From an uncultured Eubacteriales bacterium (GTDB lineage Bacteria > Bacillota > Clostridia > Christensenellales > Aristaeellaceae): a DNA stretch of 64,000 bases. The stretch covers positions 28,615 to 92,614 of the forward strand of contig CACWZP010000007.1 of the NCBI GenBank assembly GCA_902765395.1, given 5' to 3'. Numbering within the stretch: position 1 is the first letter of the stretch; each line of letters begins with the position of its first letter. Under the pieces are notes generated by a model. It saw only the letters and a program-made list of their open reading frames with translations, was not told the origin of the DNA and did not search any database. Shown here in pieces: positions 6,546 through 21,846 of the stretch. A program made the translations under genes and the position numbers.

Positions 6546-6568
6546 GTCAGGATGGCGCCTCTCAATCG

Positions 6569-6883
6569 TCAATCGCTCTCGTGCTTGTTTTCCCAGTGGA
6601 TCAGCAGCGTCATGGCCGCGCGCATCAGCAGCACCGCGCAGGTCATGCCCACGTCCTTCCAGTCCGGGGTGACGATGGTCTTCAGGATCTCGCTGCCCAG
6701 CAGGAAGGTGAGCGCGGTGGAGATGCCGTCGTAGAGGATGTGCTTGCTCTTGTGCCTGTCCCGGAACAGCCATACCAGCGCCCGCACCGCCGCGATGAGC
6801 AGTATGATCACGCCCACGGCCTCGAAGGCCAGTATGCCGTACTGTACAGCGGTTGAAAAGATGTGCTCAAGGGTCTCGTACAT
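6569..6883 (-). CDS. DUF1622 family membrane protein
   Basis: A 104-residue integral membrane protein with three predicted hydrophobic helices, containing the family pattern (FEAVGVIILLIAAV near the N-terminus, a charged cytoplasmic loop, then LLGSEILKTIV). The function of DUF1622 proteins is unknown. Two ATGs 6 bases apart are possible; AGGAG is placed correctly (7 bases) for the ATG at 6883. It sits between apbE and the NusG_II gene on the same strand, with gaps of 23 and 39 bases, so it is probably co-transcribed with the flavin-modification group. Confidence 0.8.
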   Translation of the reverse strand: MYETLEHIFSTAVQYGILAFEAVGVIILLIAAVRALVWLFRDRHKSKHILYDGISTALTFLLGSEILKTIVTPDWKDVGMTCAVLLMRAAMTLLIHWENKHESD

Positions 6884-6922: not shown

Positions 6923-7906
6923 TTATTCCATCATGTAGGCGTCCGCGCCGCTGGTGGTGTGGAGGGTCCGGTCCCGGGCGATGAAGGCGGCCTCCACGCC
7001 GTCTATGCCCTCGATCAGCGCCATTCCCCCGTCCGTGCCCAGGGCGAAGGCCGCCGTGGCCAGGGCGTCGCCCCACATGGAGCTGTCGGAGAATATGGTC
7101 ACCGAGGCCAGCTCGTTGTCCACCGGCCAGCCGGTGTGGGCATCGAGGATGTGGTGGTAGTACCTTCCGTCCACCTCGAAGCCCCGCTCGTAGATGCCGC
7201 TGGTGACGGTGGAGCCGCCGAAGTTCCTCGCCACGGCCATGTATTCCCCGGTGGGCTTGTCGATGTCCTGTATGCCCACCTTCCAAGGGCTGCCGTCGGG
7301 CTTTTCGCCGATGGCCACGATGTTGCCGCCGAAGGAGAGTATGGCGCTGGTCACGCCGCGGTCGACCAGGTACTGCTTCACGGCGTCGGCGATATAGCCC
7401 TTGGCGATGCCGCCCAGGTCGATCATCATGCCCTCGGGCAGGGTGACGGTATCGCCGTCCACCACCAGGCGGCGGTAATCCACCAGCGCCGCCGCGGCCT
7501 CCAGGGCGCCCGCGTCCGGCAGTTCGTTCTTCCCGGAGGTGAAGTCCCACAGCGTGGACGCCGGGGCGATGGTGATGTCGAACGCCCCGCCGGACATCTC
7601 GCTGACCCGGCTGGCCGTGTCGATGATCTCCAGCGTCTCCTTCGAGACCTGCACCGGCTGTCCGCCCGCGTGGTTCATCCGCCAGACGTCGCTGCCCTCT
7701 ATCGTCCGGGAAAGCAGCTTTTCGTAGCGGCCGCATTCTTCAAGCGCGTCCTTCAGCACCGAGGCGTCCTCCACATAGGCCGTCAGCGTGATGACGGTGT
7801 CCAGGTAGAAGCCTACGGCGGACTCCTTCTTCGGCTCCGCCTTCGCGCAGCCCGCCAGCAGCAGCGCCAGCGCCATCAGAAGCGCGGCCCCTTTCAATCC
7901 CTTCAT
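6923..7906 (-). CDS. apbE: FAD:protein FMN transferase, lipoprotein
   Basis: ApbE-family enzyme that attaches FMN covalently to Ser/Thr of extracytoplasmic proteins carrying the D-x-x-S/T-G-A-T/S motif. The 327-residue protein starts with a lipoprotein signal (LLLAGC), then the ApbE fold with the MIDLGGIAKGYIAD segment, SFGGN, and the Mg-binding C-terminal region ending in HTTSGADAY. I chose ATG 7906 since AAAGGA lies 8 bases upstream, rather than a codon 30 bases earlier. Probable substrates are encoded nearby: the secreted reductase (9266-11782) and the FMN-domain permease (14931-16457), both with SGAT motifs. It is co-directional with the Gx-type gene upstream (22-base gap). Confidence 0.93.
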   Translation of the reverse strand: MKGLKGAALLMALALLLAGCAKAEPKKESAVGFYLDTVITLTAYVEDASVLKDALEECGRYEKLLSRTIEGSDVWRMNHAGGQPVQVSKETLEIIDTASRVSEMSGGAFDITIAPASTLWDFTSGKNELPDAGALEAAAALVDYRRLVVDGDTVTLPEGMMIDLGGIAKGYIADAVKQYLVDRGVTSAILSFGGNIVAIGEKPDGSPWKVGIQDIDKPTGEYMAVARNFGGSTVTSGIYERGFEVDGRYYHHILDAHTGWPVDNELASVTIFSDSSMWGDALATAAFALGTDGGMALIEGIDGVEAAFIARDRTLHTTSGADAYMME

Positions 7907-7928
7907 TCGGCAAATCCTTTCCATGAGA

Positions 7929-8606
7929 TTATGCACCCTGCACCCGCAGCGCCCTGAACACCCGCTGGGCCACGATGCCCGTCAGGCAGCCCACCACCGC
8001 GCCGATGCCGACGAGTATCGGCAGGTACGTGAACATCAGCTGGGGCGTGCGCAGCATGGCGCTGGCGGCCAGGATCTGGCCGATGTTGTGGGCCACGGCT
8101 CCGGCCAGGGACGTGCCCAGCACGCTCCACTCCGGCCGTTTGCGGATGGCGGCAAACGCCACGATGGCCGCGAGCCCCGCCAGGGCGATCAGCAGCATGC
8201 ACCAGAGCATCTGGCCCCGGGGCGCGCGGTTGCGCAGCAACAGGTACAAATCGCTCGCAAAGGCCATCAGGCCGATCACCAGCGCGCCGATCCTGGCGTT
8301 CTTCCGCACCAGCAGCATGACGATCAGGCTGAGCACGCCGCCGGACAGGCTGTAGATGATGGCGCTCATGGAGCCGAACATGAACCCGGACAGCAGCACC
8401 TTTGCCAGCATCAGCGCCGCGCAGCCCCGCCAGTCCATCAAATAGACGGCGTAGAGCAGCACCGTGTTGGCCAGGCCCAGCTTGATGCCCGGCACCGCCC
8501 CGCTCAAGAACCAGGTGAGCGGTATGGCCCGGTCCAGCCAGCCCAGCACCAGCGACAGCGCCACCAGCAGCCCGAAGCGCGCCACGGTTTTCGCCTTTGA
8601 ATTCAA
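7929..8606 (-). CDS. Gx-type transporter family membrane protein (heptaprenyl diphosphate synthase component I family) with a two-helix insertion
   Basis: A 225-residue membrane protein with the signature segments of the family, GAVPGIKLGLANTV and later SLAGAVAHNIGQ. The start is a TTG with GGAGG 7 bases upstream. Family members are usually about 170 residues; here about 55 residues (approximately 103-160) containing two additional hydrophobic helices separate the two conserved halves. Members occur beside ApbE and NusG_II genes and may supply a membrane substrate or cofactor for extracytoplasmic flavinylation, but that is inferred from context. The older name as a prenyl-diphosphate synthase subunit is probably not informative here. 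Confidence 0.82.
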   Translation of the reverse strand: MNSKAKTVARFGLLVALSLVLGWLDRAIPLTWFLSGAVPGIKLGLANTVLLYAVYLMDWRGCAALMLAKVLLSGFMFGSMSAIIYSLSGGVLSLIVMLLVRKNARIGALVIGLMAFASDLYLLLRNRAPRGQMLWCMLLIALAGLAAIVAFAAIRKRPEWSVLGTSLAGAVAHNIGQILAASAMLRTPQLMFTYLPILVGIGAVVGCLTGIVAQRVFRALRVQGA

Positions 8607-8622
8607 GTGATGACCTCCATGC

Positions 8623-9042
8623 TCACATTCCGCGGACTTCCACAGACAGTTTGTGGGGCAGGCACACGATAAAGCCGCCCAGTACCCTTAATTCCAGGTT
8701 CTCCTCGGTGACCTCGCCCATGTTCACGCAGTCCTGGCCCTCGCAGTTGGCGCTTTCCATGTGCACGCCGCTCCCCGTGAGGGCGACGGTGTTCTCGCCG
8801 CCGTCCGGCTGGGCGATGGTCAGGGTGTGCGGCTCGGAGAAGGGCAGGTCGATCAGCGGCGCGCCGTCCAGCGTGACATACACCCGCAGGCCATCCACCT
8901 CCGGCGCCACGCTGCCGGCCTGTACGGCCTCACCGTCCAGAAGCAGCCGAACCGCGCGGTCCGCAGGCTCCCCGGACCAGCCGCAGCCGGCCAGCGCCGC
9001 GCACAGCGCAATGGCCAGGATCAATAAGGAGAATCGCCTCAC
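8623..9042 (-). CDS. NusG-domain-II lipoprotein
   Basis: A 139-residue predicted lipoprotein (signal ending in ALAGC) with the same NusG-II C-terminal pattern as the protein at 6123: CEGQDCVNMGEVT followed by GGFIVCLPHKLSVEV. The start is GTG at 9042, with GGAGG 8 bases upstream; an in-frame extension to 9111 would add a hydrophilic leader before the signal peptide and is rejected. It is the first gene of the leftward group NusG_II, Gx-type protein, apbE, DUF1622, NusG_II. A strong promoter is at 9083-9111. Its function is unknown beyond the extracytoplasmic redox context. Confidence 0.82.
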   Translation of the reverse strand: MRRFSLLILAIALCAALAGCGWSGEPADRAVRLLLDGEAVQAGSVAPEVDGLRVYVTLDGAPLIDLPFSEPHTLTIAQPDGGENTVALTGSGVHMESANCEGQDCVNMGEVTEENLELRVLGGFIVCLPHKLSVEVRGM

Positions 9043-9082
9043 TGCCCATTCCTCCGGGAATACATCATAATAATCCTTGTAT

Positions 9083-9111
9083 ATTATACATGGTTCGCGC
9101 CATTTTATCAA
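9083..9111 (-). promoter_or_regulatory. Putative sigma-A promoter for the NusG_II-apbE group
   Basis: On the minus strand TTGATA (9111-9106), a 17-base spacer and a perfect TATAAT (9088-9083) lie 41 bases before the GTG start at 9042. Confidence 0.8.
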
Positions 9112-9213: not shown

Positions 9214-9265
9214 AATTATGTACGATTGGCATCACGCCCGTCAAGATTATAACAGGAGGGATACC

Positions 9266-11782
9266 ATGAAGAAACTGCTTGCTTTGTTGTTGAGCGCATG
9301 CATGCTGCTGGGCTGCGTGGCGCTCGCGGAAGGCGAAACCGTTCTCACCGGCAGCGCCCAGGGCTTTGCCAGTGAGGTGAGCGTGGAAGTGACCGTCGAC
9401 GCCGACGGCAAGATCATCGCCCTGACGGTTGACGATTCCAACGAAACCTACCCCACAGCCGGCATTGAGCGCGCCAACAGCGTGGAAAAGCTCATCGCCG
9501 CCATCCTGGACGCCGGTACCGTGGAGGGTGTCGACACCACCACCACCGCGACTTTCACCAGCAACGGCGTCGTGGATGCCGTGAAGGCCGCCCTGGCCAG
9601 CGCCGGTTCCGATGAAGGAGCCGCCGCCGAGGCCGCCGAAATGGCCTTCACCGCCGGCACCTACGAGGCCACCGCGGACGGCTACAACGGCCCCGTGACC
9701 GTGGCCGTCACCTACACCGACAGCGCCATCGAGAACATCGAGATCGTGAACAGCGTGGAGACCGACCATGTGGGCACCCCCGCCTTTGAGATCATGATCC
9801 CCGAGATGATCGAGGCCAACGGCGCGGGCGTGGACGGCGTCTCCGGCGCCACCTTCTCCACCCGCGCGCTGCGCACCGCCGTGCTGGACACCGCCGAGCA
9901 GGCCGGCTGCACCAACATGGACGCCTTCAAGGCCGCCAAGATCGAGCACACCGCCAGCGATCCCATCGCCCTGGACTACGACGTGGTCGTGGTCGGCGCG
10001 GGCGGCGCGGGCATGGCCGCCGCGGCTCAGGCCGCCCAGGACGGCAACACCGTGCTGGTGATCGAGAAGAACGCCGAGGTCGGCGGCAACACGCTGGTCT
10101 CCGGCGGTCAGTATCAGTCCGTGATGCCCTACCTGGTGTGGGATCCCGCCGATCCGGACGCTGAAACCGGCGTCTATGCCTTCGACGGCCAGACCTACAA
10201 CAAGGTGAAGTCCGTGCAGGGCTGCATCAACGAGCTGAAGATGATCCTCAACTGGTCCGAAGAGCCCTTCGACGAGGACTACTACAAGGACAACGAGTTC
10301 GTGGCCGGCGATGCCGCCGAGCTGAGCAAGCATGGCGTGCATGCCGAGTACCTGCCCATCCTGAAGGCCCTGAAGGAAGAGATCCAGGCCTATCTGGATT
10401 GGGCGCAGCCGAAGCTGGACGCGGGCATCCCCGAGAACCAGCTGACCCTGTTCTCCACCGTGAACCTGCACATCTTCCAGACTTACTACGGCGGCCTGCG
10501 CCAGAGCGCGGACAAGAGCGAGTGGATCTACGGCGACGTGGACCTGGTTTCCCAGTTCATCCAGGACGGCCAGGGCCTGAAGGAGTGGCTGGAGGAGCAG
10601 GGCGCGACCTTCATCGAGGACACTCAGCCCACCCTGATCGGCGCGCTGTGGTATCGTGAAAACGAGTTCGTCGGCTCCACCATCGACCTGGACGGCGACG
10701 GCGAGCCGGAGATGGGCCGCTGGGGCAGCTACTTCGCCGCGCCCATGAAGACCATCTACGAAGCCAACGAGAAGAACAACATCATGCTGCGCACCACCGC
10801 CACCGACCTGATCGTCGAAGACGGCCGCGTGACCGGCGTGAAGGCCGAGACCTATGACGGCACCGAAGTGACCGCCAAGGCCTCCAAGGGCGTCATTCTG
10901 ACCACCGGCGGCTATGCCGCGAACATCAACATGGTGCTGGACAACAACGTGTACTGGTCCACCGAGTACCTGTCCACCGCCACCAAGACCACCAACCGCT
11001 CCAGCCTGCAGGGCGACGGCATCGTCATGGCCGAGGCCGCGGGCGCCGCGACCACCGGCCTGGGCTTCACCCAGCTGATGCCCATCTCCTGGGTGGACAA
11101 CGGCAACCTGGCCTTCGGCGGCGGCAACTACGCCTGCTGGATCAACCCCACCACCGGCCACCGCTTCGTGGACGAGGGCTCCGAGCGCGACGTGCTGAGC
11201 CTGGCCGAGTTCAAGAACGGCATGGAAGTGAACGGCACCAAGGGCGTGTTCCTGGAGTTCTACAACAAGGAGCAGATGATGCCCGCGCCGATGCAGCTGG
11301 CCGAGGGCGACTATCCGGGCCGCTACTATCGCCGCACCATCGCCGACCTGCCCGCTCTGTTCGAGGAGCTGGGCGTGACCGCCGATCCCGAGGTCGTCAT
11401 CCAGACCATCCGCGACTACGACGCGGCTGTGATGGGCCAGGGCGAGTTCCCGGACGTTGGCAAGGCCATCGCCTCCCGCACCATCGGCAACGTGGAGCTG
11501 AACGAGGACGGCAGCTACAACGTGGACACCTATGACCTGGACAACGCGCTGCTGACCATCCGCCTGATGGCCCCCTCCACCCACCACACCATGGGCGGCC
11601 TGAAGGTGGACACCTCCCGTCACGTGCTGAACGCCGACGGCGAGATCATCCCCGGCCTGTACGCGGCTGGCGAGGTCACCGGCGGCATCCACGGCGGCAA
11701 CCGCCTGGGCGGCAACGCCATCGTGGAGATCTTCGTGTCCGGCCGTACCGCGGCCAAGGCCGTCACGGCTGACAACCAGTAA
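9266..11782 (+). CDS. Secreted flavoprotein reductase: two FMN-binding domains plus a fumarate-reductase-type FAD domain
   Basis: An 838-residue exported enzyme. After the signal peptide (about residues 1-22; CMLLGC could also be a lipobox) come two FMN-binding domains: residues 26-113 with a degenerate site (DTTTTATFTS) and residues 130-214 with a canonical flavinylation motif, DGVSGAT, acceptor Thr196. The rest is a fumarate reductase/succinate dehydrogenase-type FAD domain: VVVVGAGGAGMAAA near residue 241, HRFVDEGSERD, THHTMGGLKV and a final GGNRLGGNAIVE. In this family those conserved His and Arg residues bind and protonate an alpha,beta-unsaturated carboxylate, so it probably serves as a terminal reductase for fumarate, urocanate or a similar acceptor; the true substrate cannot be read from sequence. 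GGAGGG precedes the ATG at 9266. ApbE is encoded divergently. Confidence 0.93.
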   Translation: MKKLLALLLSACMLLGCVALAEGETVLTGSAQGFASEVSVEVTVDADGKIIALTVDDSNETYPTAGIERANSVEKLIAAILDAGTVEGVDTTTTATFTSNGVVDAVKAALASAGSDEGAAAEAAEMAFTAGTYEATADGYNGPVTVAVTYTDSAIENIEIVNSVETDHVGTPAFEIMIPEMIEANGAGVDGVSGATFSTRALRTAVLDTAEQAGCTNMDAFKAAKIEHTASDPIALDYDVVVVGAGGAGMAAAAQAAQDGNTVLVIEKNAEVGGNTLVSGGQYQSVMPYLVWDPADPDAETGVYAFDGQTYNKVKSVQGCINELKMILNWSEEPFDEDYYKDNEFVAGDAAELSKHGVHAEYLPILKALKEEIQAYLDWAQPKLDAGIPENQLTLFSTVNLHIFQTYYGGLRQSADKSEWIYGDVDLVSQFIQDGQGLKEWLEEQGATFIEDTQPTLIGALWYRENEFVGSTIDLDGDGEPEMGRWGSYFAAPMKTIYEANEKNNIMLRTTATDLIVEDGRVTGVKAETYDGTEVTAKASKGVILTTGGYAANINMVLDNNVYWSTEYLSTATKTTNRSSLQGDGIVMAEAAGAATTGLGFTQLMPISWVDNGNLAFGGGNYACWINPTTGHRFVDEGSERDVLSLAEFKNGMEVNGTKGVFLEFYNKEQMMPAPMQLAEGDYPGRYYRRTIADLPALFEELGVTADPEVVIQTIRDYDAAVMGQGEFPDVGKAIASRTIGNVELNEDGSYNVDTYDLDNALLTIRLMAPSTHHTMGGLKVDTSRHVLNADGEIIPGLYAAGEVTGGIHGGNRLGGNAIVEIFVSGRTAAKAVTADNQ

Positions 11783-11849: not shown

Positions 11850-12548
11850 TCAATTCATCCCGGTTGTCCTTGCCGGACTCAACTCTCCCCCATCCATCCG
11901 GTACACGTGATCCGCGTAGCGCGCGGCCTCGCTGTCGTGGGAGACGATCAGCACGGCGCGGCCGTCGCTCTTCGCGGTGTCGCGCAGCACGGTCAGCACC
12001 CGCTCGGTGTTTTCGTCGTCCAGGTCGCCGGTGGGCTCGTCGGCCAGGATCACCTCGGGGGCCTGTGCCAGCGCACGGGCGATGGCCATGCGCCGCAGCT
12101 CGCCGCCGGAGAGCTCCGCGGGCATGGCGTCCGAAAGGTGTTCGATGCCAAGCGCCGCCATCCAGCGCTTCGCGGCCTCGATATCGCCGCCCTTCCCGGC
12201 CAGCTGGGCCGGCAGCAGTATGTTCTCCAGCGCGGTCAGCGTGTCGATGGCGCTCCTGCCCTGGGGGATCACGCCCAGCTTCCCGTTGCGCAGCCTGGAC
12301 AGCGCCTTGTCGTTCAGGCCGTAGACATCCGTCTCGCCCAGCCAGACCTTGCCCTCCGTGGGCGTGAGCAGCCCGGACAGCATGTGCAATAGCGTGGTCT
12401 TGCCGGAGCCGGAGCGGCCCATCAGCACCGTCACCTCGCCGCTGTTCAGCGCAAGGCTCGCGTCCTTTACGGCATAGAAGCAGTTGGCCTGCCCTGTCTT
12501 TCTGAAGTACTGTTTGGACAGGTTTTCAGCTCGAAGCACCATGCTCAT
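11850..12548 (-). CDS. ABC transporter ATP-binding protein (MacB/LolD type)
   Basis: A 232-residue ATPase with Walker A GRSGSGKT, signature LSGGELRR, Walker B VILADEPTGDLD and the H-loop VSHD. It is of the class that works with FtsX/MacB-type permeases, which perform mechanotransmission or export rather than classical import. The start (ATG 12548) overlaps the stop of the preceding permease gene by an ATGA, so the pair forms a translationally coupled unit. It is the last gene of the long leftward iron/redox cluster beginning with the FTR1 gene at 21846. Confidence 0.92.
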   Translation of the reverse strand: MSMVLRAENLSKQYFRKTGQANCFYAVKDASLALNSGEVTVLMGRSGSGKTTLLHMLSGLLTPTEGKVWLGETDVYGLNDKALSRLRNGKLGVIPQGRSAIDTLTALENILLPAQLAGKGGDIEAAKRWMAALGIEHLSDAMPAELSGGELRRMAIARALAQAPEVILADEPTGDLDDENTERVLTVLRDTAKSDGRAVLIVSHDSEAARYADHVYRMDGGELSPARTTGMN

Positions 12549-13747
12549 GCCCCCTCCCGCAAGGTCGTACCGGGGTCGACCCGGCTCAGTCGCCAGGCCG
12601 CAAAGGCGCTGGCGATCGCGCCCACCAGCAGCGTGACCAGCAGCGTGGTGCCCGCCAGTGCAAGCACCGTGCCGGTACTGGGCGTCAGGTACGGAAGGCC
12701 CAGCCGCGATTCGATCAGCGTGGTGAACGGGAACACCGCCAGAGACGCCACGCCCACGCCCAGCAGGCCGCCCGCCAGGCTGCACAGCGCCGTCTCGGTG
12801 AGGATCAGGCCGGTGAGGCCGCCCCTGGACGTGCCCAGCAGCCGCAGCACCGCGAATTCGCGGCGGCGCTCGGCGATCATCATGGCAAAGGCGATCAGCA
12901 GCACCACGAAGGCCAGTGCCCACACCGCCACCGCCAGCAGCGACACGGTGCGCGCGATGCCGGCGAGGCTCTCGGACACGTCGGTAATCATCGTGCGGGT
13001 GCGCACGGTCTTGGTCTTGCGCACGTGGGCGGCCAGTCGCACCTCGATGTCACTGACGTCATAGCCCGGGGCCACCTTCACATAGATGGCGGAGATCCGG
13101 TCGCCGTTGTCGCTGGTGAGCCTGTGCACGATCCCCTTCTCCTCGGCGGCGGCCAGCAGGGTCTTCATGGTGTCCATGTTGCAGTAGACCGCGGTGTCAA
13201 ACCCCGTGCCGGTCTCGGCCAGCTTTGCCACCACGCGGCAGCTGCGGTCGTAGATGCGCAGGTTCTCCCCTACGCCGGTGGACACCTTGCAGCCCACGGC
13301 CAGCTCCATGTCGCCCAGGTCACGGGAGAGGCTCCGGTCGATCCAGGGCTTGACGGTGAAGTCCACGCCCGGGTCGATGCCGATGATCTGCACCTTCACG
13401 GCGCAGCAGTCCGCCTTCAGGGACGTGAGGTAGGTCTGCGGCGCGGCGATTTCCACGCCCTCCACCTCCCGCACCTTGTCCAGCGCGGAGGCCTTCATGT
13501 AATACTCGCCCACGGTACCCTGCAGGAACAGCTCCTTCAGGTCCACCTTGCTGGCCATCTCGCCGGGGACGACGATGATGTCCGCACCCAGGCGGGCCTC
13601 AAGGCTGTTCAGGCCGCCCCGCAGCGAGCGCACGACGACGGACCCGCCGAACACGGCCAGCGCCAGGAAGGCCGTCAGCAGCACCAGGGCACAGGTGCGT
13701 CCCGGTTTGCGCAGCAGGTTTTTGATGGGCAGTTTGCCGGTTCCCAT
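12545..13747 (-). CDS. FtsX/MacB-like ABC transporter permease
   Basis: A 400-residue permease: one N-terminal transmembrane helix (residues about 20-40), a roughly 220-residue extracytoplasmic MacB-type periplasmic core domain, then three C-terminal helices with the FtsX segment ERRREFAVLRLLGTSRGGL. No FMN-type domain or SGAT motif is present, unlike the permease at 14931. The ATG at 13747 follows the DUF4418 gene by 4 bases and has only a weak AGAAG site, suggesting translational coupling. It pairs with the ATPase at 11850. The substrate is unknown; position suggests a role with the iron-uptake genes. Confidence 0.9.
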   Translation of the reverse strand: MGTGKLPIKNLLRKPGRTCALVLLTAFLALAVFGGSVVVRSLRGGLNSLEARLGADIIVVPGEMASKVDLKELFLQGTVGEYYMKASALDKVREVEGVEIAAPQTYLTSLKADCCAVKVQIIGIDPGVDFTVKPWIDRSLSRDLGDMELAVGCKVSTGVGENLRIYDRSCRVVAKLAETGTGFDTAVYCNMDTMKTLLAAAEEKGIVHRLTSDNGDRISAIYVKVAPGYDVSDIEVRLAAHVRKTKTVRTRTMITDVSESLAGIARTVSLLAVAVWALAFVVLLIAFAMMIAERRREFAVLRLLGTSRGGLTGLILTETALCSLAGGLLGVGVASLAVFPFTTLIESRLGLPYLTPSTGTVLALAGTTLLVTLLVGAIASAFAAWRLSRVDPGTTLREGA

Positions 13748-13751
13748 GCCG

Positions 13752-14141
13752 TCACTTCTCTTTCCGCGCCGCCAGCCAGCCGACGAGCGCTGCCAGCAGC
13801 GCAATGCCGAACAGGATCAGCATCGCCGGGCGCATCAGCATGCGGCAGCGCATGGTGTCCATTCCGCAGATGGCAATCAGCGTGCCGGGGGTCAGCATGC
13901 CCAGCAGCGACGCAGGCGCCATGGCCAGATAAAGGCCCGCCCGCTCCTTCTTCAGCGCCATGGCCAGCGCCGCCAGCACCGCCAGCAGCGCGCCTTCGCC
14001 CAGGATCGCCCGCGCCGCCCAGTGGCAGGCGCCGAAGCTGCCGTCTTCGTGGACGCAGGCGCCCAGGAAGGTCTGGCTGCCGACGGCGATGACGAGGGCA
14101 AGGACGAGGATTATGATGGCGGGAATTATGGCTTTTTTCAT
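13752..14141 (-). CDS. DUF4418 family membrane protein
   Basis: A 129-residue protein with four hydrophobic helices. It contains conserved-looking cysteines in ACVHEDG, GACHW and ICGMDTMRCRM, the last resembling the DUF4418 family, which is of unknown function and is often encoded next to MacB-type ABC genes. Two ATGs are adjacent; GGAG lies 7 bases before the one at 14141. It sits between the two ABC modules of the cluster. The extracytoplasmic cysteine, histidine and methionine residues could bind a metal, which would fit the iron context, but this is inference. Confidence 0.75.
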   Translation of the reverse strand: MKKAIIPAIIILVLALVIAVGSQTFLGACVHEDGSFGACHWAARAILGEGALLAVLAALAMALKKERAGLYLAMAPASLLGMLTPGTLIAICGMDTMRCRMLMRPAMLILFGIALLAALVGWLAARKEK

Positions 14142-14163
14142 CATTTCTCTCCTTTGTTCCAAA

Positions 14164-14257
14164 CGAGAGTTTAGAGTTCAGAGTTCAGAGTTTAGATAAT
14201 AGCGGAGAACTTGCGCCATTCAATCCAAACTCTAAGCTCTTGACTCTCAACTCTATT
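14164..14257. repeat. Dispersed palindromic repeat, family A, inside the iron cluster
   Basis: Left arm GAGTTTAGAGTTCAGAGTT and right arm AACTCTAAGCTCTTGACTCT form an imperfect hairpin of about 94 bp. It is the same family as 4361-4446. Its right edge contains the stop codon of the ATPase gene at 14253, so the element separates the first ABC module from the DUF4418 module. Confidence 0.75.
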
Positions 14258-14927
14258 CAACGAAGTTCTCGTTGACGATCTCCCGGGCCACCTTGCCGTG
14301 CTCCAGCACGATGGTGCGCTGGGCGGCCTCGGCCACCTCGGGATCGTGGGTGACGACGATCAGCGTGGTGCCCTCCCGGTGCAGCTGGCGGAACAGGTCC
14401 AGCACGATGTTCTCGTTGGCCTCGTCCAGGTTGCCGGTGGGCTCGTCTGCCAGGATCAGCTCCGGGTGATTGATCAACGCCCGGGCCACGCACACGCGCT
14501 GCTGCTCGCCGCCGGAGAGCTGGCTGGGCAGGTGCTTGGCGCGCTCCCGCAGGCCCACGCGGCCCAGGGCCTCCAGGGCCTCTTCCTCGTCGGGCATGGA
14601 GTGGTAGTACTGGCTGACCATCACGTTCTCCACCGCGGTGAGGTAGCCCACCATGTGGAACTGCTGGAAGATCAGACCGATCTTGTCCCGGCGAATGTCG
14701 GTCAGGCGCTTGCTGGATTCCTTGGAGATATCCACGCCGTCCAGCAGCACCTCGCCCTTGGTGGGCTTGTCCATGCAGCCGATGATGTTCATCATCGTGG
14801 ACTTGCCAGAGCCGGAGGGGCCCATGATGGCCACCCACTCGCCCTTGTCCACGTGCAGGCTCACGTTGTTCAGCGCCTTCAGCTCGCCGTATATCTTGGA
14901 AATGTTCTTCAGTTCAAGAAGTGCCAT
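14253..14927 (-). CDS. ABC transporter ATP-binding protein (LolD/MacB type)
   Basis: A 224-residue ATPase: Walker A GPSGSGKS, Q-loop FQQFHMVGYLT, signature LSGGEQQR, Walker B LILADEPTGNLD, H-loop VTHD. It starts 3 bases after the stop of the FMN-domain permease, with a good AGGAG, so they are surely co-translated. In the related Campylobacter jejuni p19 locus a single ATPase serves two permeases encoded just upstream, the same order seen here (permease 16599, permease 14931, ATPase 14253). Confidence 0.93.
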   Translation of the reverse strand: MALLELKNISKIYGELKALNNVSLHVDKGEWVAIMGPSGSGKSTMMNIIGCMDKPTKGEVLLDGVDISKESSKRLTDIRRDKIGLIFQQFHMVGYLTAVENVMVSQYYHSMPDEEEALEALGRVGLRERAKHLPSQLSGGEQQRVCVARALINHPELILADEPTGNLDEANENIVLDLFRQLHREGTTLIVVTHDPEVAEAAQRTIVLEHGKVAREIVNENFVE

Positions 14928-14930
14928 AAA

Positions 14931-16457
14931 TCATTCTCCTTTCAGTACCAGGGCGGGGTCGATGGCCACGGCCCGCTTGATGGGCATCAGGCAGCTGGCC
15001 GCGGCGATCAGCACGGAAACAATCACCGCCGCGGGCAGCAGCAGCGGCTGGAACGTGATGGAGGAACCAAACACGTTCACGCTGACCACCTGGGCAAACA
15101 CGAAGCCCAGCAGCGCGCCCAGCACGCCGCCCAGGATGCCCAGGAACACGCCCTCGCCCAGGAATTCCACCCGAATGGAGTTGTCCGACGCGCCCAGGGC
15201 CTTGCGCAGGCCGATCTCCCGCCGGCGCTCGGAGACCACCGCCATCATCGTGGTGGACACGCAGATCATGGTCAGCAGCAGCACGACCACCGTCACCAGG
15301 AACACCAGCGCCTGGAGCTTGCCCAGCACCGCCGTCTCCGACTTGGTGACGCGCTTCACCAGCCGCGCCGTGACGCCCTGGCCGCTCTGGCCGATCTGCT
15401 CGGCGTAGGCGTTCAGCTGCTCCTCCTCGGCGGAGACGGACAGCTCCGCCACGTCCAGCTTGTCCTCGCCGGTCAGGCTCTGCATGTCCCCGAGGGACAT
15501 GAACACATAGCCCTCCTCCTCGCCACCGGTGACCAGTATGCCCGTGACGGTGTACTTGACCGTGTTGGGCTTGGCGGCGGCGTCGGCATTGCGCGCGGAA
15601 TTCAGCGCGTTCACGATGGCCGCGGAGGACACCGTCGCGCCGGACAGGGCGTCCACCTGATCGCTGCCCTCGGGGGCAGCGTTCTTGGCGGAGGCGACCC
15701 CCGCGCCCACTGTCTCGTCCGCGTCCGGGTTCAGCCGAAGCGGCAGCTTCTTGCCGACGAACTGGGAAAGGAACGCCTGGTCCGTCTGGGTGCGGCCGCC
15801 GAACTCCTCGGTCTGGGTGGAGGCGTCCACGGCGATCTCCGCGATGGCGCCGTCCTCGCCCAGGGTGGCCGTGACGGTCATCGTGCCGCCGCTCCAGCCC
15901 TCGGCGCTGCCGGTGAGCTTCGCGCCGGGGACCCAGTCCGCCGAGACATCGCCGGAGGCGCTCGTAACGCTGGGCTGGTAGGTCAGCTCCATGGTGGAGC
16001 CCTCCTTCACGCCGATGGTCTCGGCGATCTCCTTGCCCACCAGCACCTCGCGCGTGCCATCGGGATAGCGGCCCTCCACGCTGAAATAGGGGCTGGTCTT
16101 CTTGACCTGTTCAAAGTCCGTGCCCGCCGAGGTAAAGGACTGCTGGCGGGAGGTCATGTCCAGGCGCACATAGCGATAGGGCGTGGCGCCCACCAGGGCC
16201 TCCTCCGGGAACAGGGCAAGCACGCCGTCCAGCTTTTCCGTCGTCAGCGTCTCGCCCTCGTCCGGCATCAGCAGCATGTTCGCGCCGTAGGAGCGCATCT
16301 GCGAGCGCATCTGCCGGGGCACGTCGTAGTATATCGTCACCATGCCCGCCAGGATCGTCGCGCCGATGCCGATGGACAGCAGCGCGATGAGCATGCGGGA
16401 GCGCCGCCTGAGCAGCGACGCGGTGATCATCCGCAGGAACATACGTCTTTTAGTCAT
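14931..16457 (-). CDS. FtsX-type ABC permease with an FMN-binding (flavinylation) domain embedded in its extracytoplasmic region
   Basis: A 508-residue permease. Residues 22-45 form the N-terminal membrane helix; the extracytoplasmic MacB-type domain follows; the C-terminal third has three helices with ERRREIGLRKALGASDNS. Within the extracytoplasmic domain, residues about 181-288 match the FMN-binding domain found in RnfG/NqrC and secreted reductases: TGSAEGWSGGTMTVTATL, then IAEIAVDAS, and the flavinylation motif DALSGATVSSAA at 269-280 with predicted acceptor Thr275. Removing it leaves a normal 400-residue permease. The domain faces outside, where the neighbouring ApbE acts. It lies between the permease at 16599 and the ATPase at 14253. 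It probably passes electrons to iron or to the DUF2318/P19 partners during uptake; that role is inference. Confidence 0.9.
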   Translation of the reverse strand: MTKRRMFLRMITASLLRRRSRMLIALLSIGIGATILAGMVTIYYDVPRQMRSQMRSYGANMLLMPDEGETLTTEKLDGVLALFPEEALVGATPYRYVRLDMTSRQQSFTSAGTDFEQVKKTSPYFSVEGRYPDGTREVLVGKEIAETIGVKEGSTMELTYQPSVTSASGDVSADWVPGAKLTGSAEGWSGGTMTVTATLGEDGAIAEIAVDASTQTEEFGGRTQTDQAFLSQFVGKKLPLRLNPDADETVGAGVASAKNAAPEGSDQVDALSGATVSSAAIVNALNSARNADAAAKPNTVKYTVTGILVTGGEEEGYVFMSLGDMQSLTGEDKLDVAELSVSAEEEQLNAYAEQIGQSGQGVTARLVKRVTKSETAVLGKLQALVFLVTVVVLLLTMICVSTTMMAVVSERRREIGLRKALGASDNSIRVEFLGEGVFLGILGGVLGALLGFVFAQVVSVNVFGSSITFQPLLLPAAVIVSVLIAAASCLMPIKRAVAIDPALVLKGE

Positions 16458-16490
16458 GTCATGCCTCCATAGGAAGGATAAGCGGATACC

Positions 16491-16602
16491 AATCAGGAAT
16501 CAGGAATGCTGAATTATGGTGCAAATCCTGACGGATATGATTCATTGAAAAGAGCATCCTCAATTTCTCATTCCTGACTCCTCATTCCTCATTGAGAATC
16601 AC
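16491..16602. repeat. Dispersed palindromic repeat, family B (ATTCCTCATTCC type)
   Basis: Left arm AATCAGGAATCAGGAATG, right arm CTCATTCCTGACTCCTCATT: an imperfect inverted repeat of about 110 bp filling the space between the two permease genes. The stop codon of the permease at 16599 lies on its edge. Partial copies are near 20068, 53040 and 58318. Confidence 0.75.
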
Positions 16603-17913: not shown

Positions 17914-19203
17914 TTATTTGAACTCCCGTTCGCCGGCCAGGATGTCCTCCAATTTGAACATCAGCTTGCCGTCCTCCACCTCGTATTTCAGCGGGATGGG
18001 GTTGCAGCCGCCCTTGAAGCCGATGGTGTTGGTGTTCATGATGACGTCGCAGCGGCGGCAGACCACCTGGCCGTTGCGCTCGTAGTAGCCCGCGTTGCCG
18101 CAGACCTCGCAGGCGTCCAGGCCCACGCCGTAGGCGGCGGAATTGGGCTTGCGCACCACGATCCAGCGCACGTCGACGTTGTTCTCCGTGCGATACTCGA
18201 AGCGGTGGAGGTGGAAGTCGTTCACATCCTCCATGGCCACGTAGATCTTGTCCCCCTCCACGGTGTAGGTCTCCGGCGCGGAGAGCTCGATCTCCCGGGT
18301 GTCGTATTCCTTGATGATGGTCAGCGACAGGCCGAACACCACCATGCAGGCCAGCGCCACGCAGGCCATGCGCCGATAGGAACGGTTCTTCGCCCGCAGC
18401 TTGCGGTGCTGGGCGGGGTTGAACCAGGGCTCGGTGACCCGGGTGTTCTGGATGAAGCAGGCCACAAAACAGATCACTGCCAGGGCGAAGATCGAAAATA
18501 TGAACAACAGCGGATAGTTCGCCGACAGCATCACCAGGTCGCCCACAAAGCCGTGGACGGCCTTGTCGTATTTGATGGGCCAGTGCAGCCACTTGGCCCG
18601 GGTGATCCACGGGGCGAAGAAGCGGCAGACGCTGTAGAAACCGTAGATGAATACGCCCGCCCAGGTGAGCGCCATGCCGGCGCCATAGGGCCGGATATGT
18701 TCAGCGCAGCGATAGAGCATGCGCGAATAGACGACGAGGAGTATGAGCGCCAGCAGCCAGCCTACCAGGCGGATCATGTAATTGGTGGACAGCACGCCCA
18801 CGCCCATGGTGTTGAAACTGGTGAGATAGAGCGCCACATTGGGCAGGCGCAGGAAGATCATCGCGGCGGCGAGGCCCGCTCCGGCGACGCACACCAGCGT
18901 GCCGCCCGCGCCCGGCGCGGATTCTTCCCGCCGGCCGAAGATCAGAAGCAGCACCATGAAAGCCAATGAGAAGCCGATGATGAAGCCAAAGGTGTAGTGG
19001 TTCCAGTGGCTGGAGATGATTTTATTCGTCGTGGCTTTGGCCACGGTAAAGGCCGCGGAGGCGGCGAGGGAGACGCACACGCCTGCGATGTGGAAGCGCC
19101 GTCCGTACTTTCCGTACAGGCGGTCCAGCACGGCATAGATCAGCGTGACCAGCGTCACCGTGGAGAACAGGTCCTGGGTCACCGTCCAGAGATATTTGAG
19201 CAT
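17914..19203 (-). CDS. DUF2318 (Fe-S-containing) polytopic membrane protein
   Basis: A 429-residue protein with about eight membrane helices over residues 10-310, then an extracytoplasmic domain of the DUF2318 family. The domain has a paired-cysteine motif, DACEVCGNAGYYERNG followed by VVCRRCDVIMN and GGCNPIPL, that could hold an Fe-S cluster or iron. DUF2318 membrane proteins accompany P19 and FTR1 genes (Cj1660 in Campylobacter). GGAGG fits the ATG at 19203 (7 bases) better than the ATG 6 bases upstream. It probably moves electrons or iron across the membrane together with P19, but the mechanism is not known. Confidence 0.9.
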   Translation of the reverse strand: MLKYLWTVTQDLFSTVTLVTLIYAVLDRLYGKYGRRFHIAGVCVSLAASAAFTVAKATTNKIISSHWNHYTFGFIIGFSLAFMVLLLIFGRREESAPGAGGTLVCVAGAGLAAAMIFLRLPNVALYLTSFNTMGVGVLSTNYMIRLVGWLLALILLVVYSRMLYRCAEHIRPYGAGMALTWAGVFIYGFYSVCRFFAPWITRAKWLHWPIKYDKAVHGFVGDLVMLSANYPLLFIFSIFALAVICFVACFIQNTRVTEPWFNPAQHRKLRAKNRSYRRMACVALACMVVFGLSLTIIKEYDTREIELSAPETYTVEGDKIYVAMEDVNDFHLHRFEYRTENNVDVRWIVVRKPNSAAYGVGLDACEVCGNAGYYERNGQVVCRRCDVIMNTNTIGFKGGCNPIPLKYEVEDGKLMFKLEDILAGEREFK

Positions 19204-19348
19204 TTTCATGCCTCCCGGATGTATTCATGAAGACGCGATACAACAGTTAACACAAGTTAACGTGCGCTTCACATTGTTCCTGAACATACCTACTGCTGAT
19301 GCGCATCCCCCGCGGATCGCACATCAGCAGTCATGGTTTTTGGGTTTG

Positions 19349-19394: not shown

Positions 19395-19946
19395 TTACCA
19401 CTGCTTGACGAAGTCCCAGCCAGTCCAGGTCGCTTCGATGGGCTCGTCCCACCAGGCATCGGCCTCGGGGCCAGTCTCGTCGGTATGCAGCAGCATGCCG
19501 TTCTCGCCGGGGTTCTTGATGGACAGCTTCACGGAATAGCCCTCGCCCTCGGGCAGAGCGATGTTGTTGCCGTAGTGCTGGCCGTCGGAGGCGTTCATGG
19601 GCATCATGGTGCCGTCGGCGATCTGGTTGCCCTCGGCATCCAGGACGACGTAGTCGATGGTCAGGTAGGGAACCCACTCGCCCTTATTGAAGCCATACTC
19701 GTTCTCCTCGGCGGTCAGGTCCACTTCGATGTGCAGGTCAGAGCCCTCCTTGGGAGTGGCCAGGTCGGTGGGAGCCATGTCCACGGGCTGGAAATAAACC
19801 ATGCTCATGGTCAGGAAGCCGACGGTCTGCTCACCCTCGACGCCCAGATCGAACTCGTCGAAACCAGCCTCGTCCTCGGCCAGAGCCAGGGCGGAAACGC
19901 TCAGCAGCATCAGAGCGGCCATCAGCAGAGCAAGAAACTTCTTCAT
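19395..19946 (-). CDS. P19/Tp34-type iron-binding protein (periplasmic or surface)
   Basis: A 183-residue secreted protein with a clear signal peptide (ending ALALAED) and the P19/Tp34 iron-transport fold: FLTMSMVYFQPVDMAP, DLHIEVDLTA, FNKGEWVPYLTIDY, and a late ADAWWDEPIEATWTGWDF. P19 proteins bind copper and iron and act with FTR1-type permeases in iron uptake. AGGAGG lies 9 bases before the ATG. It is flanked by the FTR1 gene upstream and DUF2318 downstream, the same order as in Campylobacter. The hairpins downstream suggest it may be made in larger amounts than the membrane partners. Confidence 0.93.
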   Translation of the reverse strand: MKKFLALLMAALMLLSVSALALAEDEAGFDEFDLGVEGEQTVGFLTMSMVYFQPVDMAPTDLATPKEGSDLHIEVDLTAEENEYGFNKGEWVPYLTIDYVVLDAEGNQIADGTMMPMNASDGQHYGNNIALPEGEGYSVKLSIKNPGENGMLLHTDETGPEADAWWDEPIEATWTGWDFVKQW

Positions 19947-20067: not shown

Positions 20068-20097
20068 TTCCTCATTCCTAATTCCTCATTCCTACTT
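20068..20097. repeat. Family B repeat fragment (ATTCCTCATTCC type) between FTR1 and P19
   Basis: Tandem ATTCCTCATTCCTAATTCC units matching one arm of the element at 16491-16602. The other arm is not obvious, so it may be a decayed copy. It abuts the FTR1 stop codon. Confidence 0.6.
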
Positions 20098-21846
20098 TTT
20101 TGAAGCGTACTGCGCCTTCAAGGCGTCCATCTTACCGCGGTAGTGGGCGATCATGAACGTCACCAGCAGCACGATGGACAGGATCAGCTGGGGCACCAGC
20201 GTCTCAAGCCACGGATAGATGCCGAAGATCTGGATCACGTCGTTCTCCGGGATGCCCGGCACGTTCAGCGTCAGGTCGAACACGTTGCCCTCGGCCAGCT
20301 CCTTGATGCCGCTGCCCAGGAAGGACACGCACATCACGGCCATCAGGATGGACGTGGCGGTGAAGAACACCTTGATCGGCAGCTTGATGGACAGCTTGGT
20401 GATGGCCAGGTAGACGAACACCAGCAGCACGCAGCCCGCCCCGAAGCCCGCCCAGACCATGCCCGGGTTGCCCTCGGAGAGCATCGGCTGGTAGAACAGC
20501 ACCACCTCAGCGCCCTCGCGGAACACCGACAGGAACGCGGTAAACGCCAGTGCAAACGCGCTGCCCTGCTCCACGGAGGACTGCACCTTGTTGTCGATGT
20601 AGCGGCTCCAGGACGCAGCCTCGGCCTTGGAGATCATCCAGTTGGACACGTAGAACAGCACGCACACGGCAATCAGGGCGGTGATGCCCTCGATGACCTC
20701 CTGGGCCAGGCCGGCGCTGGCAAAGGCGCTCTTGGCCCAGGCCAGCACGGCCGCGGCGGCGAAGGAGGCGGCGATGCCCGCGATGGCGCCGATGTAGACG
20801 TTCTTCAGGCTCTTGCCGTTGCCGCTCTTGGTGAGATAGGCGATGATGGCGGCGATGACCAGGATGGCCTCCAGGCCCTCGCGCACGATGATGCCGAAGG
20901 CGCCCAGGAAGGTGAGCAGCCGCGGGTCGGACTCGGCGGCCTCCACTTCGGCCTCATCGGTTTCGGCGGCCTCGGGATTCGCGGCGGCCTTGGCTTCGGC
21001 CTCCTGCTCGTCGATCTTCTTGGCCTTCTTGAACAGCATCTGCTCGATGCCGTTGTTGCGCTTGCGGTACTTGGTGATGGAGTAGTTCTCGTCTCCCTTC
21101 TTGGCCATGGACAGCATGGCGCTGAAGGAGTTTTCCACCTCAAGCCTGTCCTCCAGGGACAGATCGGTGTAGATCTTGTGGTCCAGCCCGGACTCCTCGT
21201 AGACGGTGTAGTAGGCGGTCTGCAGGTTGTCCACGGCGGCCTCGAAATCCTTGTCCAGGTAGCCCTGGAACGCGGTGTCCAGCAGCTCCTGGGTCAGCAC
21301 CGCCACCTCGTACCAGCTTTCGTACTTCATGGCGGCGTTGGGATCGGCGGAGTACTCGGGATAGGGATCGGCGTCCACCATCTCCCCTGCCTTGTACCAC
21401 TTGTTCTCGCTGGTGACGCCGCCCTGCTTGCCGGCCAGGGTGTTGCCGTCGTCGCGGATCATGGTCTTCAGCTTCACCAGCGCGCTGCGCACGGAGGTGA
21501 TGGTCTCGGGGTCAGTGTTCTCCTTCTTGACTGCGCTCTTGCAGGCGGAGAACTGCATCTCCACGGCGTTCTTGCGATTGCCGGAGATATAGGTCATCGT
21601 CTGGCGCTCAAAGCCGGTGGTCTCATAGACCCGGAAGTAGGCGTCGCTCACGTTCTGGTAGGCGGAAGCGGCGTCCCCGGCCAGGTAGTCCTCAAAGGCC
21701 GTGTCCAGGTACTTGTCGATCTGGTCGGAGGCGTCCGCCCAGCGGGTGTCCCCCGTGGATTCCGCCAGCACCGGCGCACACTGCACAAGCAGCATCATCG
21801 CCAGGACGGCGACCAGCGCCAGCCGGGCGATTCTCTTCATTTTCAT
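20092..21846 (-). CDS. FTR1-family iron permease with an extracytoplasmic N-terminal domain
   Basis: A 584-residue protein. A signal peptide is followed by about 270 extracytoplasmic residues that contain two tandem related units (LDTAFEDYL...AYFRVYE and LDTAFQGYL...AYYTVYE). The C-terminal seven-helix FTR1/EfeU domain has both REXXE iron-binding motifs, REGLE and REGAE. FTR1 permeases import ferric iron, usually after oxidation or reduction by a partner. A charged, Glu/Ala-rich linker joins the two parts. It is the first gene of the leftward cluster, so its promoter region (21900-22120) probably controls the whole set, and a DtxR-like box is found there. Confidence 0.94.
   Translation of the reverse strand: MKMKRIARLALVAVLAMMLLVQCAPVLAESTGDTRWADASDQIDKYLDTAFEDYLAGDAASAYQNVSDAYFRVYETTGFERQTMTYISGNRKNAVEMQFSACKSAVKKENTDPETITSVRSALVKLKTMIRDDGNTLAGKQGGVTSENKWYKAGEMVDADPYPEYSADPNAAMKYESWYEVAVLTQELLDTAFQGYLDKDFEAAVDNLQTAYYTVYEESGLDHKIYTDLSLEDRLEVENSFSAMLSMAKKGDENYSITKYRKRNNGIEQMLFKKAKKIDEQEAEAKAAANPEAAETDEAEVEAAESDPRLLTFLGAFGIIVREGLEAILVIAAIIAYLTKSGNGKSLKNVYIGAIAGIAASFAAAAVLAWAKSAFASAGLAQEVIEGITALIAVCVLFYVSNWMISKAEAASWSRYIDNKVQSSVEQGSAFALAFTAFLSVFREGAEVVLFYQPMLSEGNPGMVWAGFGAGCVLLVFVYLAITKLSIKLPIKVFFTATSILMAVMCVSFLGSGIKELAEGNVFDLTLNVPGIPENDVIQIFGIYPWLETLVPQLILSIVLLVTFMIAHYRGKMDALKAQYASKK

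What the first reader, a model, noticed from the sequence alone, without database searches (positions are those of the whole stretch)
14931..16457. An ABC permease with a flavinylation domain built into its outer part
Residues about 181-288 of this FtsX/MacB-type permease are an FMN-binding domain with an intact DALSGAT motif (acceptor Thr275). Without it the protein has the ordinary 400-residue length. FMN-binding domains are known from Rnf/Nqr subunits and secreted reductases; one embedded in the stator-like domain of a mechanotransmission ABC permease would couple ATP hydrolysis to extracytoplasmic electron transfer. ApbE is encoded 7 kb away and the genes next to it encode iron-handling redox proteins.
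Basis: partly seen in the sequence, partly recalled or inferred. Interest (0 to 1): 0.8.

Follow-up and report, generated by a model that had tools for sequence, protein, structure and literature searches.

The report
Flavin domain inside iron-uptake ABC permease
In a group of uncultured gut bacteria, an iron-uptake machine carries its flavin electron carrier built into the outer part of an ATP-driven membrane protein, at the spot where a related machine docks its partner, instead of making it as a separate protein; this puts ATP use and electron transfer into one testable molecule.

Summary
Confirmed. The gene is on the minus strand (16457..14931, 508 aa): a MacB/FtsX-type permease with an FMN_bind domain (PF04205, E 3e-11) inserted at residues ~160-301, motif SGAT, Thr275. 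It is FetC of a complete FetM-FetP-FetABCD (P19/FTR1) iron-uptake operon. That such clusters use an FMN protein is known (Liu 2018; Meheust 2021), but as a separate gene after FetD. Here the carrier is fused: 0 of 29 distinct fused loci hold a separate FMN ORF, against 25 of 34 unfused loci. Fused permeases form one clade (57 of 93 rows, support 100) and were not seen outside the window's family in samples of its order, class and phylum; [ST]GAT is kept in 57 of 57 rows. Profiles match the insert to RnfG-type domains better than to the separate protein, though a tree test does not exclude descent from it. By alignment the insertion point is the Hook position of LolC, a partner-docking hairpin that moves in the ATP cycle. 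The genome has one ApbE, 7 kb away. Best reading: a tethered flavin carrier for iron reduction during uptake; ATP-driven movement is plausible, unproven. My searches of the held library showed no description of the fusion.

The parts
14931..16457 (-). FetC-type ABC permease with embedded FMN-binding domain (508 aa)
   Evidence: MacB_PCD + FMN_bind + FtsX in one ORF
15555..15980 (-). Inserted stretch, residues ~160-301, absent from unfused FetC
   Evidence: Alignment with unfused relatives; lies between predicted strands 155-160 and 298-309; Pfam FMN_bind core is residues 190-288
15633..15635 (-). Codon of Thr275, predicted FMN acceptor of the SGAT motif
   Evidence: Motif position; [ST]GAT in 57 of 57 insert rows
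15984..16391 (-). First part of the MacB-like outer (periplasmic core) domain, residues 23-158
   Evidence: Pfam PF12704
14955..15299 (-). FtsX transmembrane domain, residues 387-501
   Evidence: Pfam PF02687
16599..17897 (-). FetB: partner ABC permease, no FMN match
   Evidence: Pfam MacB_PCD + FtsX
14253..14927 (-). FetD: ABC ATPase, 3 bp after FetC
   Evidence: Pfam ABC_tran; GPSGSGKS, LSGGE, DEPT read in the sequence
17914..19209 (-). FetA: membrane protein with FtrD-like (formerly DUF2318) cysteine domain
   Evidence: Pfam PF10080; five Cys conserved in 86 of 86 aligned rows
19395..19946 (-). FetP/P19: extracytoplasmic iron-binding protein
   Evidence: Pfam PF10634, E 4e-43
20092..21846 (-). 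FetM: FTR1-family iron permease
   Evidence: Pfam PF03239, E 9e-26
6923..7936 (-). ApbE FMN transferase with lipobox-like LLAGC; only match in the genome
   Evidence: Pfam PF02424, E 5e-84; one match in the genome
11850..14162 (-). DUF4418 protein, second FtsX-type permease and second ABC ATPase; companion block of the fused clusters, role unknown
   Evidence: Pfam; a relative of the second permease is in 27 of 27 distinct fused loci with >=1800 nt held after FetD, and 1 of 28 unfused

Best explanation
This is the FetC subunit of a FetMP-FetABCD (P19/FTR1) iron uptake system in which the extracytoplasmic flavin electron carrier, in many relatives a separate protein encoded after FetD, is instead an RnfG-like FMN-binding domain spliced into the outer domain of the ABC permease. 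ApbE attaches FMN to Thr275 outside the membrane; the flavin takes electrons from a membrane donor not yet identified (FetA or RNF are candidates) and gives them to iron held by FetP/FetM or by an outside chelator, so that iron enters through FetM. Because the domain sits where LolC carries its partner-docking Hook, the FetBCD ATP cycle may set where the flavin stands. Shown: the architecture, conserved acceptor site, operon, absence of the separate gene from fused clusters, single origin, insertion site by alignment. Inferred: flavinylation itself, electron route, iron as acceptor, ATP-driven movement.
For: Domains; full FetM-P-A-B-C-D operon on one strand. FMN_bind matches 31 of 42 members of A1, the number of fused rows put in (window plus 30). 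[ST]GAT 57 of 57 rows. Separate FMN ORF in 0 of 29 fused and 25 of 34 unfused loci; ten of the 25 checked by Pfam, all PF04205 above cut-off. Fused rows one clade, SH-aLRT 100. Insert vs RnfG profile E 5.5e-20, vs separate proteins 3.4e-8 (28 of 57 inserts, 11 RnfG, 27 separate domains); PDB sequence hits of a mixed profile include RnfG 7zc6. Whole model: best PDB matches LolE/LolC/MacB. Insertion loop aligns with LolC ~165-183, which includes Met175, named as Hook (PMC8333309, passages). Single ApbE. In B. breve both the apbE::Tn5 mutant and sif mutants are impaired with ferrous chelators (PMC5449479, passages); deletion of fetM, P, A, B, C, D, or of fetE and F together, impairs C. jejuni growth (PMC10783030, passages).
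Against: No biochemistry. The isolated insert model found no PDB fold match at E <= 0.001, and the whole model has pTM 0.48. The tree does not reject common descent of insert and separate protein (p-AU 0.373), so 'RnfG-like replacement' is not settled. Nine of 34 unfused clusters, all distant, hold no FMN ORF, so flavin is not universal to the system. FetA has no transmembrane histidine conserved in 90% of rows where the window has one, so the donor is unknown. Three separate relatives have AGAT. FtsX-type permeases are frequent hosts of inserted domains in general (PMC13114784, one passage), so an insertion alone is weak evidence of a special mechanism.
Confidence: 0.7

Rival explanations
1. 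Passive tether (a rival to the ATP step only): the fusion just keeps carrier and transporter together in fixed ratio; the flavin passes electrons to iron and the ATP cycle does something else, for example exports a reductant or works on FetM/FetP.
For: The separate form is small (ORFs of about 140-240 aa), several with a lipobox-like GC near the N-terminus, so it is probably already membrane-anchored and serves unfused in relatives. FtsX-type permeases often host inserted domains (PMC13114784, passage).
Against: Insertion is at the LolC Hook position rather than at a terminus, where a moving outer domain would be expected to act.
Confidence: 0.45
2. The FMN domain serves another extracytoplasmic acceptor (for example the FAD/FMN fumarate-reductase-like enzyme at 9218-11782) and is in the iron operon only by linkage.
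For: The reductase and the single ApbE lie next to the operon; a relative of the reductase lies nearby in three fused loci, L068, L070 and, cut, L069.
Against: In the other fused loci listed no such reductase was found in the flank held, while the iron genes are constant: 26 of 31 counted fused rows have all of FetM, P, A and B, and the other five begin near a contig or stretch end.
Confidence: 0.08
3. The domain binds flavin or iron non-covalently, or is a structural spacer, and is not an electron carrier.
For: No biochemical data; three separate relatives (L106, L170, L171) have AGAT instead of [ST]GAT.
Against: [ST]GAT is kept in 57 of 57 fused rows although the 31 aligned inserts are only 38-66% identical to the window's, one at 93% excepted; ApbE found in 30 of 31 genomes tested.
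Confidence: 0.07
4. The insert descends from the neighbouring separate FMN gene (simple gene fusion) rather than from an RnfG-type domain.
For: Same operon; the separate gene is missing from fused loci; AU test does not reject one clade (p 0.373).
Against: Profile comparison prefers RnfG by about 12 orders of magnitude in E-value; the separate proteins form their own clade 99/92; different motif layout: QFxGK ahead of the acceptor in most inserts, YGKxNGxIxN...YxKAQ in most separate proteins.
Confidence: 0.3

Closest known systems
FetMP-FetABCDEF of Campylobacter jejuni (PMC10783030, PMC6083913: passages read)
   Same: Same gene order FTR1, P19, DUF2318 membrane protein, two permeases, ATPase; iron role shown genetically there
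   Different: There the redox partners are two separate thioredoxin-like proteins (FetE, FetF); the text of PMC10783030 describes FetC as an ABC permease and holds neither the word FMN nor flavin (0 hits)
sifABCDE of Bifidobacterium breve (PMC5449479: passages read)
   Same: A membrane protein, two FtsX-type permeases, an ATPase and an FMN-binding-domain protein; ferrous-iron phenotype
   Different: SifE is a separate membrane-associated FMN protein; here the FMN domain is inside the permease
P19-associated flavinylation clusters of Meheust et al. 2021 (PMC8238504: section 15 read whole, other passages)
   Same: 260 P19 clusters with a gene containing an FMN-binding domain; flavin/thioredoxin parallel proposed
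   Different: The words ABC and permease do not occur in its main text; figure supplement and supplementary tables were not readable here, so members may be listed there
RnfG / NqrC FMN subunits (PF04205)
   Same: Insert profile closest to RnfG among the sets compared; covalent FMN on the last Thr/Ser of the motif (known for these families, recalled)
   Different: RnfG is a subunit of a redox pump, not an ABC permease
LolCDE (PMC8333309, PMC9457489: passages read)
   Same: Permease fold; insertion loop aligns with the LolC Hook that docks LolA and is relocated as the LolC outer domain moves about 12 A
   Different: No redox cofactor; extracts lipoproteins
Listeria fumarate reductase FrdA with FMN-binding domain (PMC8238504, passage)
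   Same: FMN_bind domain fused to another protein as built-in electron carrier
   Different: Partner is an enzyme, not an ATP-driven transporter

Membership tests
FMN-binding domain PF04205 | Profile match above the curated cut-off | tested here: met
   44.1 bits, cut-off 22; 31 of 42 members of A1 at E <= 0.001, the number of fused rows put in
FMN-binding domain PF04205 | Acceptor motif [ST]GA[TS] | tested here: met
   DALSGAT in the window; [ST]GAT in 57 of 57 fused rows
FMN-binding domain PF04205 | FMN_bind fold | tested here: inconclusive
   Insert model pLDDT 75.9, pTM 0.71; Foldseek vs PDB gave no match at E <= 0.001; a sequence profile finds solved RnfG and FMN-domain chains
FMN-binding domain PF04205 | Covalent flavin attached by ApbE | not testable with these tools
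   Needs expression with and without ApbE
MacB/LolC/FtsX-type ABC permease | MacB_PCD plus FtsX domains and a cognate ATPase | tested here: met
   model matches LolE/LolC/MacB
FetMP-FetABCD (P19/FTR1) iron uptake system | FTR1, P19, DUF2318 protein, two permeases, ATPase in this order | tested here: met
   coordinates
FetMP-FetABCD (P19/FTR1) iron uptake system | Redox partner (thioredoxin or FMN protein) as a separate gene after the ATPase | tested here: not met
   ORF after FetD in the window is DUF4418; no separate FMN ORF in 29 distinct fused loci (thioredoxins were not searched for). Not universal: 9 of 34 unfused loci hold no FMN ORF either
FetMP-FetABCD (P19/FTR1) iron uptake system | Iron uptake activity | not testable with these tools
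   Shown for C. jejuni and B. breve in the cited papers, not for this organism
RnfG (TIGR01947) | Whole-protein score above the cut-off 102 | tested here: not met
   28.2 bits over residues 175-288 only: RnfG-like domain, not RnfG
LolC/LolE | Equivalog TIGR02212 cut-off 362.45 | tested here: not met
   65.4 bits: same fold class, not LolC/LolE

The most novel reading that the evidence does not exclude
An ATP-driven flavin shuttle: the FMN domain takes the place of the Hook of a LolC-like permease, so each ATP cycle of FetBCD carries the covalent flavin between a membrane electron donor and ferric iron on FetP/FetM. It would be a mechanotransmission ABC transporter whose moved cargo is an electron. 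In other Fet systems the separate FMN or thioredoxin protein would be the docked partner of FetC, as LolA is of LolC.
Probability: 0.25. Interest if true: 0.85.

Novelty: new variant of a known kind. Interest (0 to 1): 0.6.

Why it matters
What the FetBCD transporter does is an open question in the Fet literature: with FetM as iron permease, its function and substrate are called unclear (PMC10783030, passage). A natural fusion of its permease with the flavin carrier says which component the carrier works with, and where on it. It gives a single protein in which flavin redox state and ATP cycle can be measured together, and it suggests reading the B. breve apbE mutant phenotype (taken by its authors as Fe-S cluster repair) as loss of flavinylation of SifE.

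Tried and rejected
Assembly or frame artefact: rejected; same insert in 57 rows and in a 2-contig genome. The other strand: no family matched. Simple fusion of the adjacent gene: disfavoured by profiles, not excluded by the tree. Several origins: not needed, one change on the core tree; long branches among distant unfused rows make their own order unsure. Fold confirmation of the insert by Foldseek: no match, led nowhere. FetA as a heme conduit: no transmembrane histidine conserved in at least 90% of 86 rows. My first narrow FMN profile missed or barely scored several separate FMN genes; it was widened by iteration and ten hits were checked with Pfam. Counting by raw loci included duplicates; the de-duplicated count is the one used. 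Rows dropped from the core tree as incomplete: L098, L099, L120. The FMN tree and the profiles used 28 of 57 inserts and 11 of the RnfG domains found. FetC searches outside the family found no fusion: 297 genomes of the order, 398 of the phylum, 245 of the class, overlapping samples; three of the phylum matches (G261, G335, G499) are weak and look like other FtsX permeases. Other phyla were reached only through the 53 loci, whose patterns favour close relatives, so independent fusions elsewhere are not excluded. Paper searches (open-licence library; the listings were partial) showed no description of the fusion; one search was for the LolC Hook. PMC11334425 and PMC13114784 were seen in passages only.

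Full report
WHAT IS THERE. The finding's ORF is real and lies on the minus strand, 16457..14931, 508 residues, with GGAGG ahead of its ATG. Pfam gives three domains above their cut-offs: MacB_PCD (23-158), FMN_bind (190-288, 44.1 bits, E 3.3e-11) and FtsX (387-501).

THE OPERON. Upstream genes and the ATPase are on the same strand: FTR1 permease (21846-20092), P19/Iron_transport (19946-19395), FtrD-like/DUF2318 membrane protein (19209-17914), FtsX permease (17897-16599), this gene, ATPase (14927-14253). This is the gene order fetM-fetP-fetA-fetB-fetC-fetD described for Campylobacter jejuni (PMC10783030, PMC6083913; passages read), and resembles sifA-D of Bifidobacterium breve (PMC5449479; passages read). 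The window gene is therefore FetC. A DUF4418 protein, a second FtsX permease and a second ATPase follow. ApbE lies at 7936-6923 and is the only ApbE match in the genome. The genome has seven FMN_bind places, two of them in the reductase at 9218-11782.

FUSED AGAINST SEPARATE. Liu et al. 2018 (PMC6083913) report for 33 species that the seventh gene of such clusters is a thioredoxin in most Proteobacteria and an FMN-binding protein in Actinobacteria, Firmicutes, Spirochaetes and Synergistetes; Meheust et al. 2021 (PMC8238504) count 260 P19 clusters with an FMN-binding gene. How does the fusion relate to this? A scan of genome contigs gave 53 loci: L068-L100 (33, MAGs titled Clostridiales, Clostridia, Lachnospiraceae or Blautia) are fused; L101-L119 (19: Treponema/Spirochaetaceae, Fusobacteriaceae, Syntrophomonadaceae, Peptococcaceae, a Clostridia MAG) are unfused; L120 is too incomplete to use. 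Among distinct FetC loci with at least 500 nt held after FetD, a separate FMN ORF is found in 0 of 29 fused and 25 of 34 unfused loci (iterated profile, over 25 bits). The nine without are distant genomes of the phylum; two of them (L174, L175) have a small ORF with CxxCH motifs there instead. Ten of the 25 separate ORFs were tested with Pfam and all match PF04205 above its cut-off. Two members of the window's own family (G061, G121) are unfused and keep the separate gene, as does G768 of the same order.

DISTRIBUTION AND ORIGIN. In the window's family 50 of 150 genomes have a FetC match (own genome included); by my reading of the hit table 47 carry the insert, two are unfused and one (G113) is cut by a contig end. 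In 297 genomes of the order the only match outside the family was unfused; so were the 17 matches besides the window's own in 398 genomes of the phylum and the three in 245 of the class, judged by ORF length and match span. On a tree of the permease core without the insert (93 rows) the 57 fused rows are one side of one branch, SH-aLRT 100. One gain explains the pattern.

CONSERVATION. The inserts are 119-152 residues against 9-41 in unfused rows. [ST]GAT is present in 57 of 57 rows: 56 by pattern and L087 as DMLSGAT; at least one pair of rows (L125, L137) is one genome. Identity of 31 aligned inserts to the window's is 38-66%, apart from L068 at 93%. ApbE is found in 30 of 31 genomes tested (28 of the 46 other fused genomes, and three unfused relatives); the miss is G146, 96% complete.

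WHERE THE DOMAIN CAME FROM. Profile comparison gives insert against RnfG E 5.5e-20, against the first FMN domain of the FAD reductases 1.7e-12, against their second 4.7e-7, and against the separate Fet FMN proteins 3.4e-8; separate against RnfG 2.5e-5. NCBIfam also lists RnfG for the insert, far under its cut-off, and solved RnfG chains are among the PDB sequence matches of a profile made from inserts and separate proteins together. In the FMN tree the separate proteins form a clade (99/92) without the inserts, but holding the two together is not rejected (p-AU 0.373; 104 columns). The likeliest history is that an RnfG-like domain entered FetC and the separate gene was lost; descent from the separate gene is not excluded.

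WHERE IT SITS. The AlphaFold model of the whole protein (mean pLDDT 79.9, pTM 0.48) puts the insert between strands 155-160 and 298-309 of the outer domain; the best PDB matches are LolE, LolC and MacB. A profile of unfused FetC aligned with E. coli LolC (E 1e-10) and LolE (E 2e-15) places the insertion loop against LolC residues ~165-183. That residue mapping is my reading of the printed alignment: an automatic parse gave nothing for LolC and only the C-terminal flank for LolE. Met175 of LolC is named as a Hook residue, and the LolC outer domain moves about 12 A toward the centre between nucleotide states, relocating the Hook (PMC8333309, passages). The Hook docks LolA (PMC9457489, passages). 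So the flavin domain occupies the position at which a related transporter handles its extracytoplasmic partner. FtsX-like permeases are listed among the most frequent hosts of inserted domains (PMC13114784, one passage), so insertion as such is not rare. The isolated insert model (pLDDT 75.9) gave no Foldseek match, so the FMN fold rests on sequence.

MECHANISM. Best supported: ApbE flavinylates Thr275 outside the membrane; the flavin is the electron carrier of the iron-uptake system, in place of the separate FMN or thioredoxin protein. Richardson-Sanchez et al. propose that FetE and FetF relay reducing power likely sourced from FetBCD and FetA to FetMP (PMC10783030, passage; they also suggest FetE/F may act as oxidases); the fusion fits by joining carrier and transporter in one chain. 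In B. breve the apbE::Tn5 mutant, like sif mutants, is impaired with ferrous chelators (PMC5449479, passages); its authors think of Fe-S repair, but loss of SifE flavinylation is another reading (inference). Whether ATP moves the flavin or the fusion is a passive tether is undecided (about 0.25 and 0.45). The electron donor is unknown: FetA keeps five cysteines in 86 of 86 rows and no transmembrane histidine in 90% of rows; an RnfG match over the family cut-off is present in 27 of 41 relatives searched, own genome included.

NOVELTY. Paper searches (partial listings) showed no description of an FMN domain inside an FtsX/MacB permease; the figure supplement and supplementary tables of PMC8238504 were not readable here and may list members without comment. 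I rate it a new variant of a known kind.

Noticed in passing
window 11850-14162 (-): DUF4418 protein plus a second FtsX permease and ATPase follow FetD; a relative of the second permease is in 27 of 27 distinct fused loci with enough flank (DUF4418 in 25) and in 1 of 28 unfused. It may be a companion acquired with the fusion.
   Followed up: partly
window 9218-11782 (+): FAD-dependent fumarate-reductase-like protein with two N-terminal FMN_bind domains; the first reads TTAT where SGAT is expected, the second has SGAT.
   Followed up: no
G000:C3:29144-29713 (L001, L193) and genus relatives among L188-L214: RnfG-type domain at the C-terminus of ORFs of mostly 520-570 aa, with SGAS instead of SGAT in most of them; L192 and L199 show a second motif DGVSGATP upstream. 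Looks like an RnfD-RnfG fusion (inferred, not tested).
   Followed up: partly
G822:C92, G821:C13, G824:C43, G836:C135: ORFs of 664-915 aa with three or four RnfG-like FMN matches in a row: multi-flavinylated proteins in the same genus.
   Followed up: no
L174, L175 after FetD: Small ORFs with CxxCH motifs (cytochrome-like) where other clusters have an FMN or thioredoxin gene: possibly a third interchangeable redox partner.
   Followed up: no
L106:12561-13088, L170:5756-6304, L171:5150-5659: Separate FMN proteins with AGAT in place of [ST]GAT; whether these are still flavinylated is unknown.
   Followed up: no
window 16458-16598: 141-bp gap between FetB and FetC with repeats of ATTCCTGATT-like units in both orientations by eye; the other gaps of over 100 bp in the core operon are those around P19.
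   Followed up: no
window 8623-9111 and 6123-6773 (-): Two small ORFs with a similar stretch (NCEGQDC..GEVT, TCENHDC..GEVT) on either side of ApbE and a membrane protein; they recall NusG_II-type proteins (recalled, not tested).
   Followed up: no
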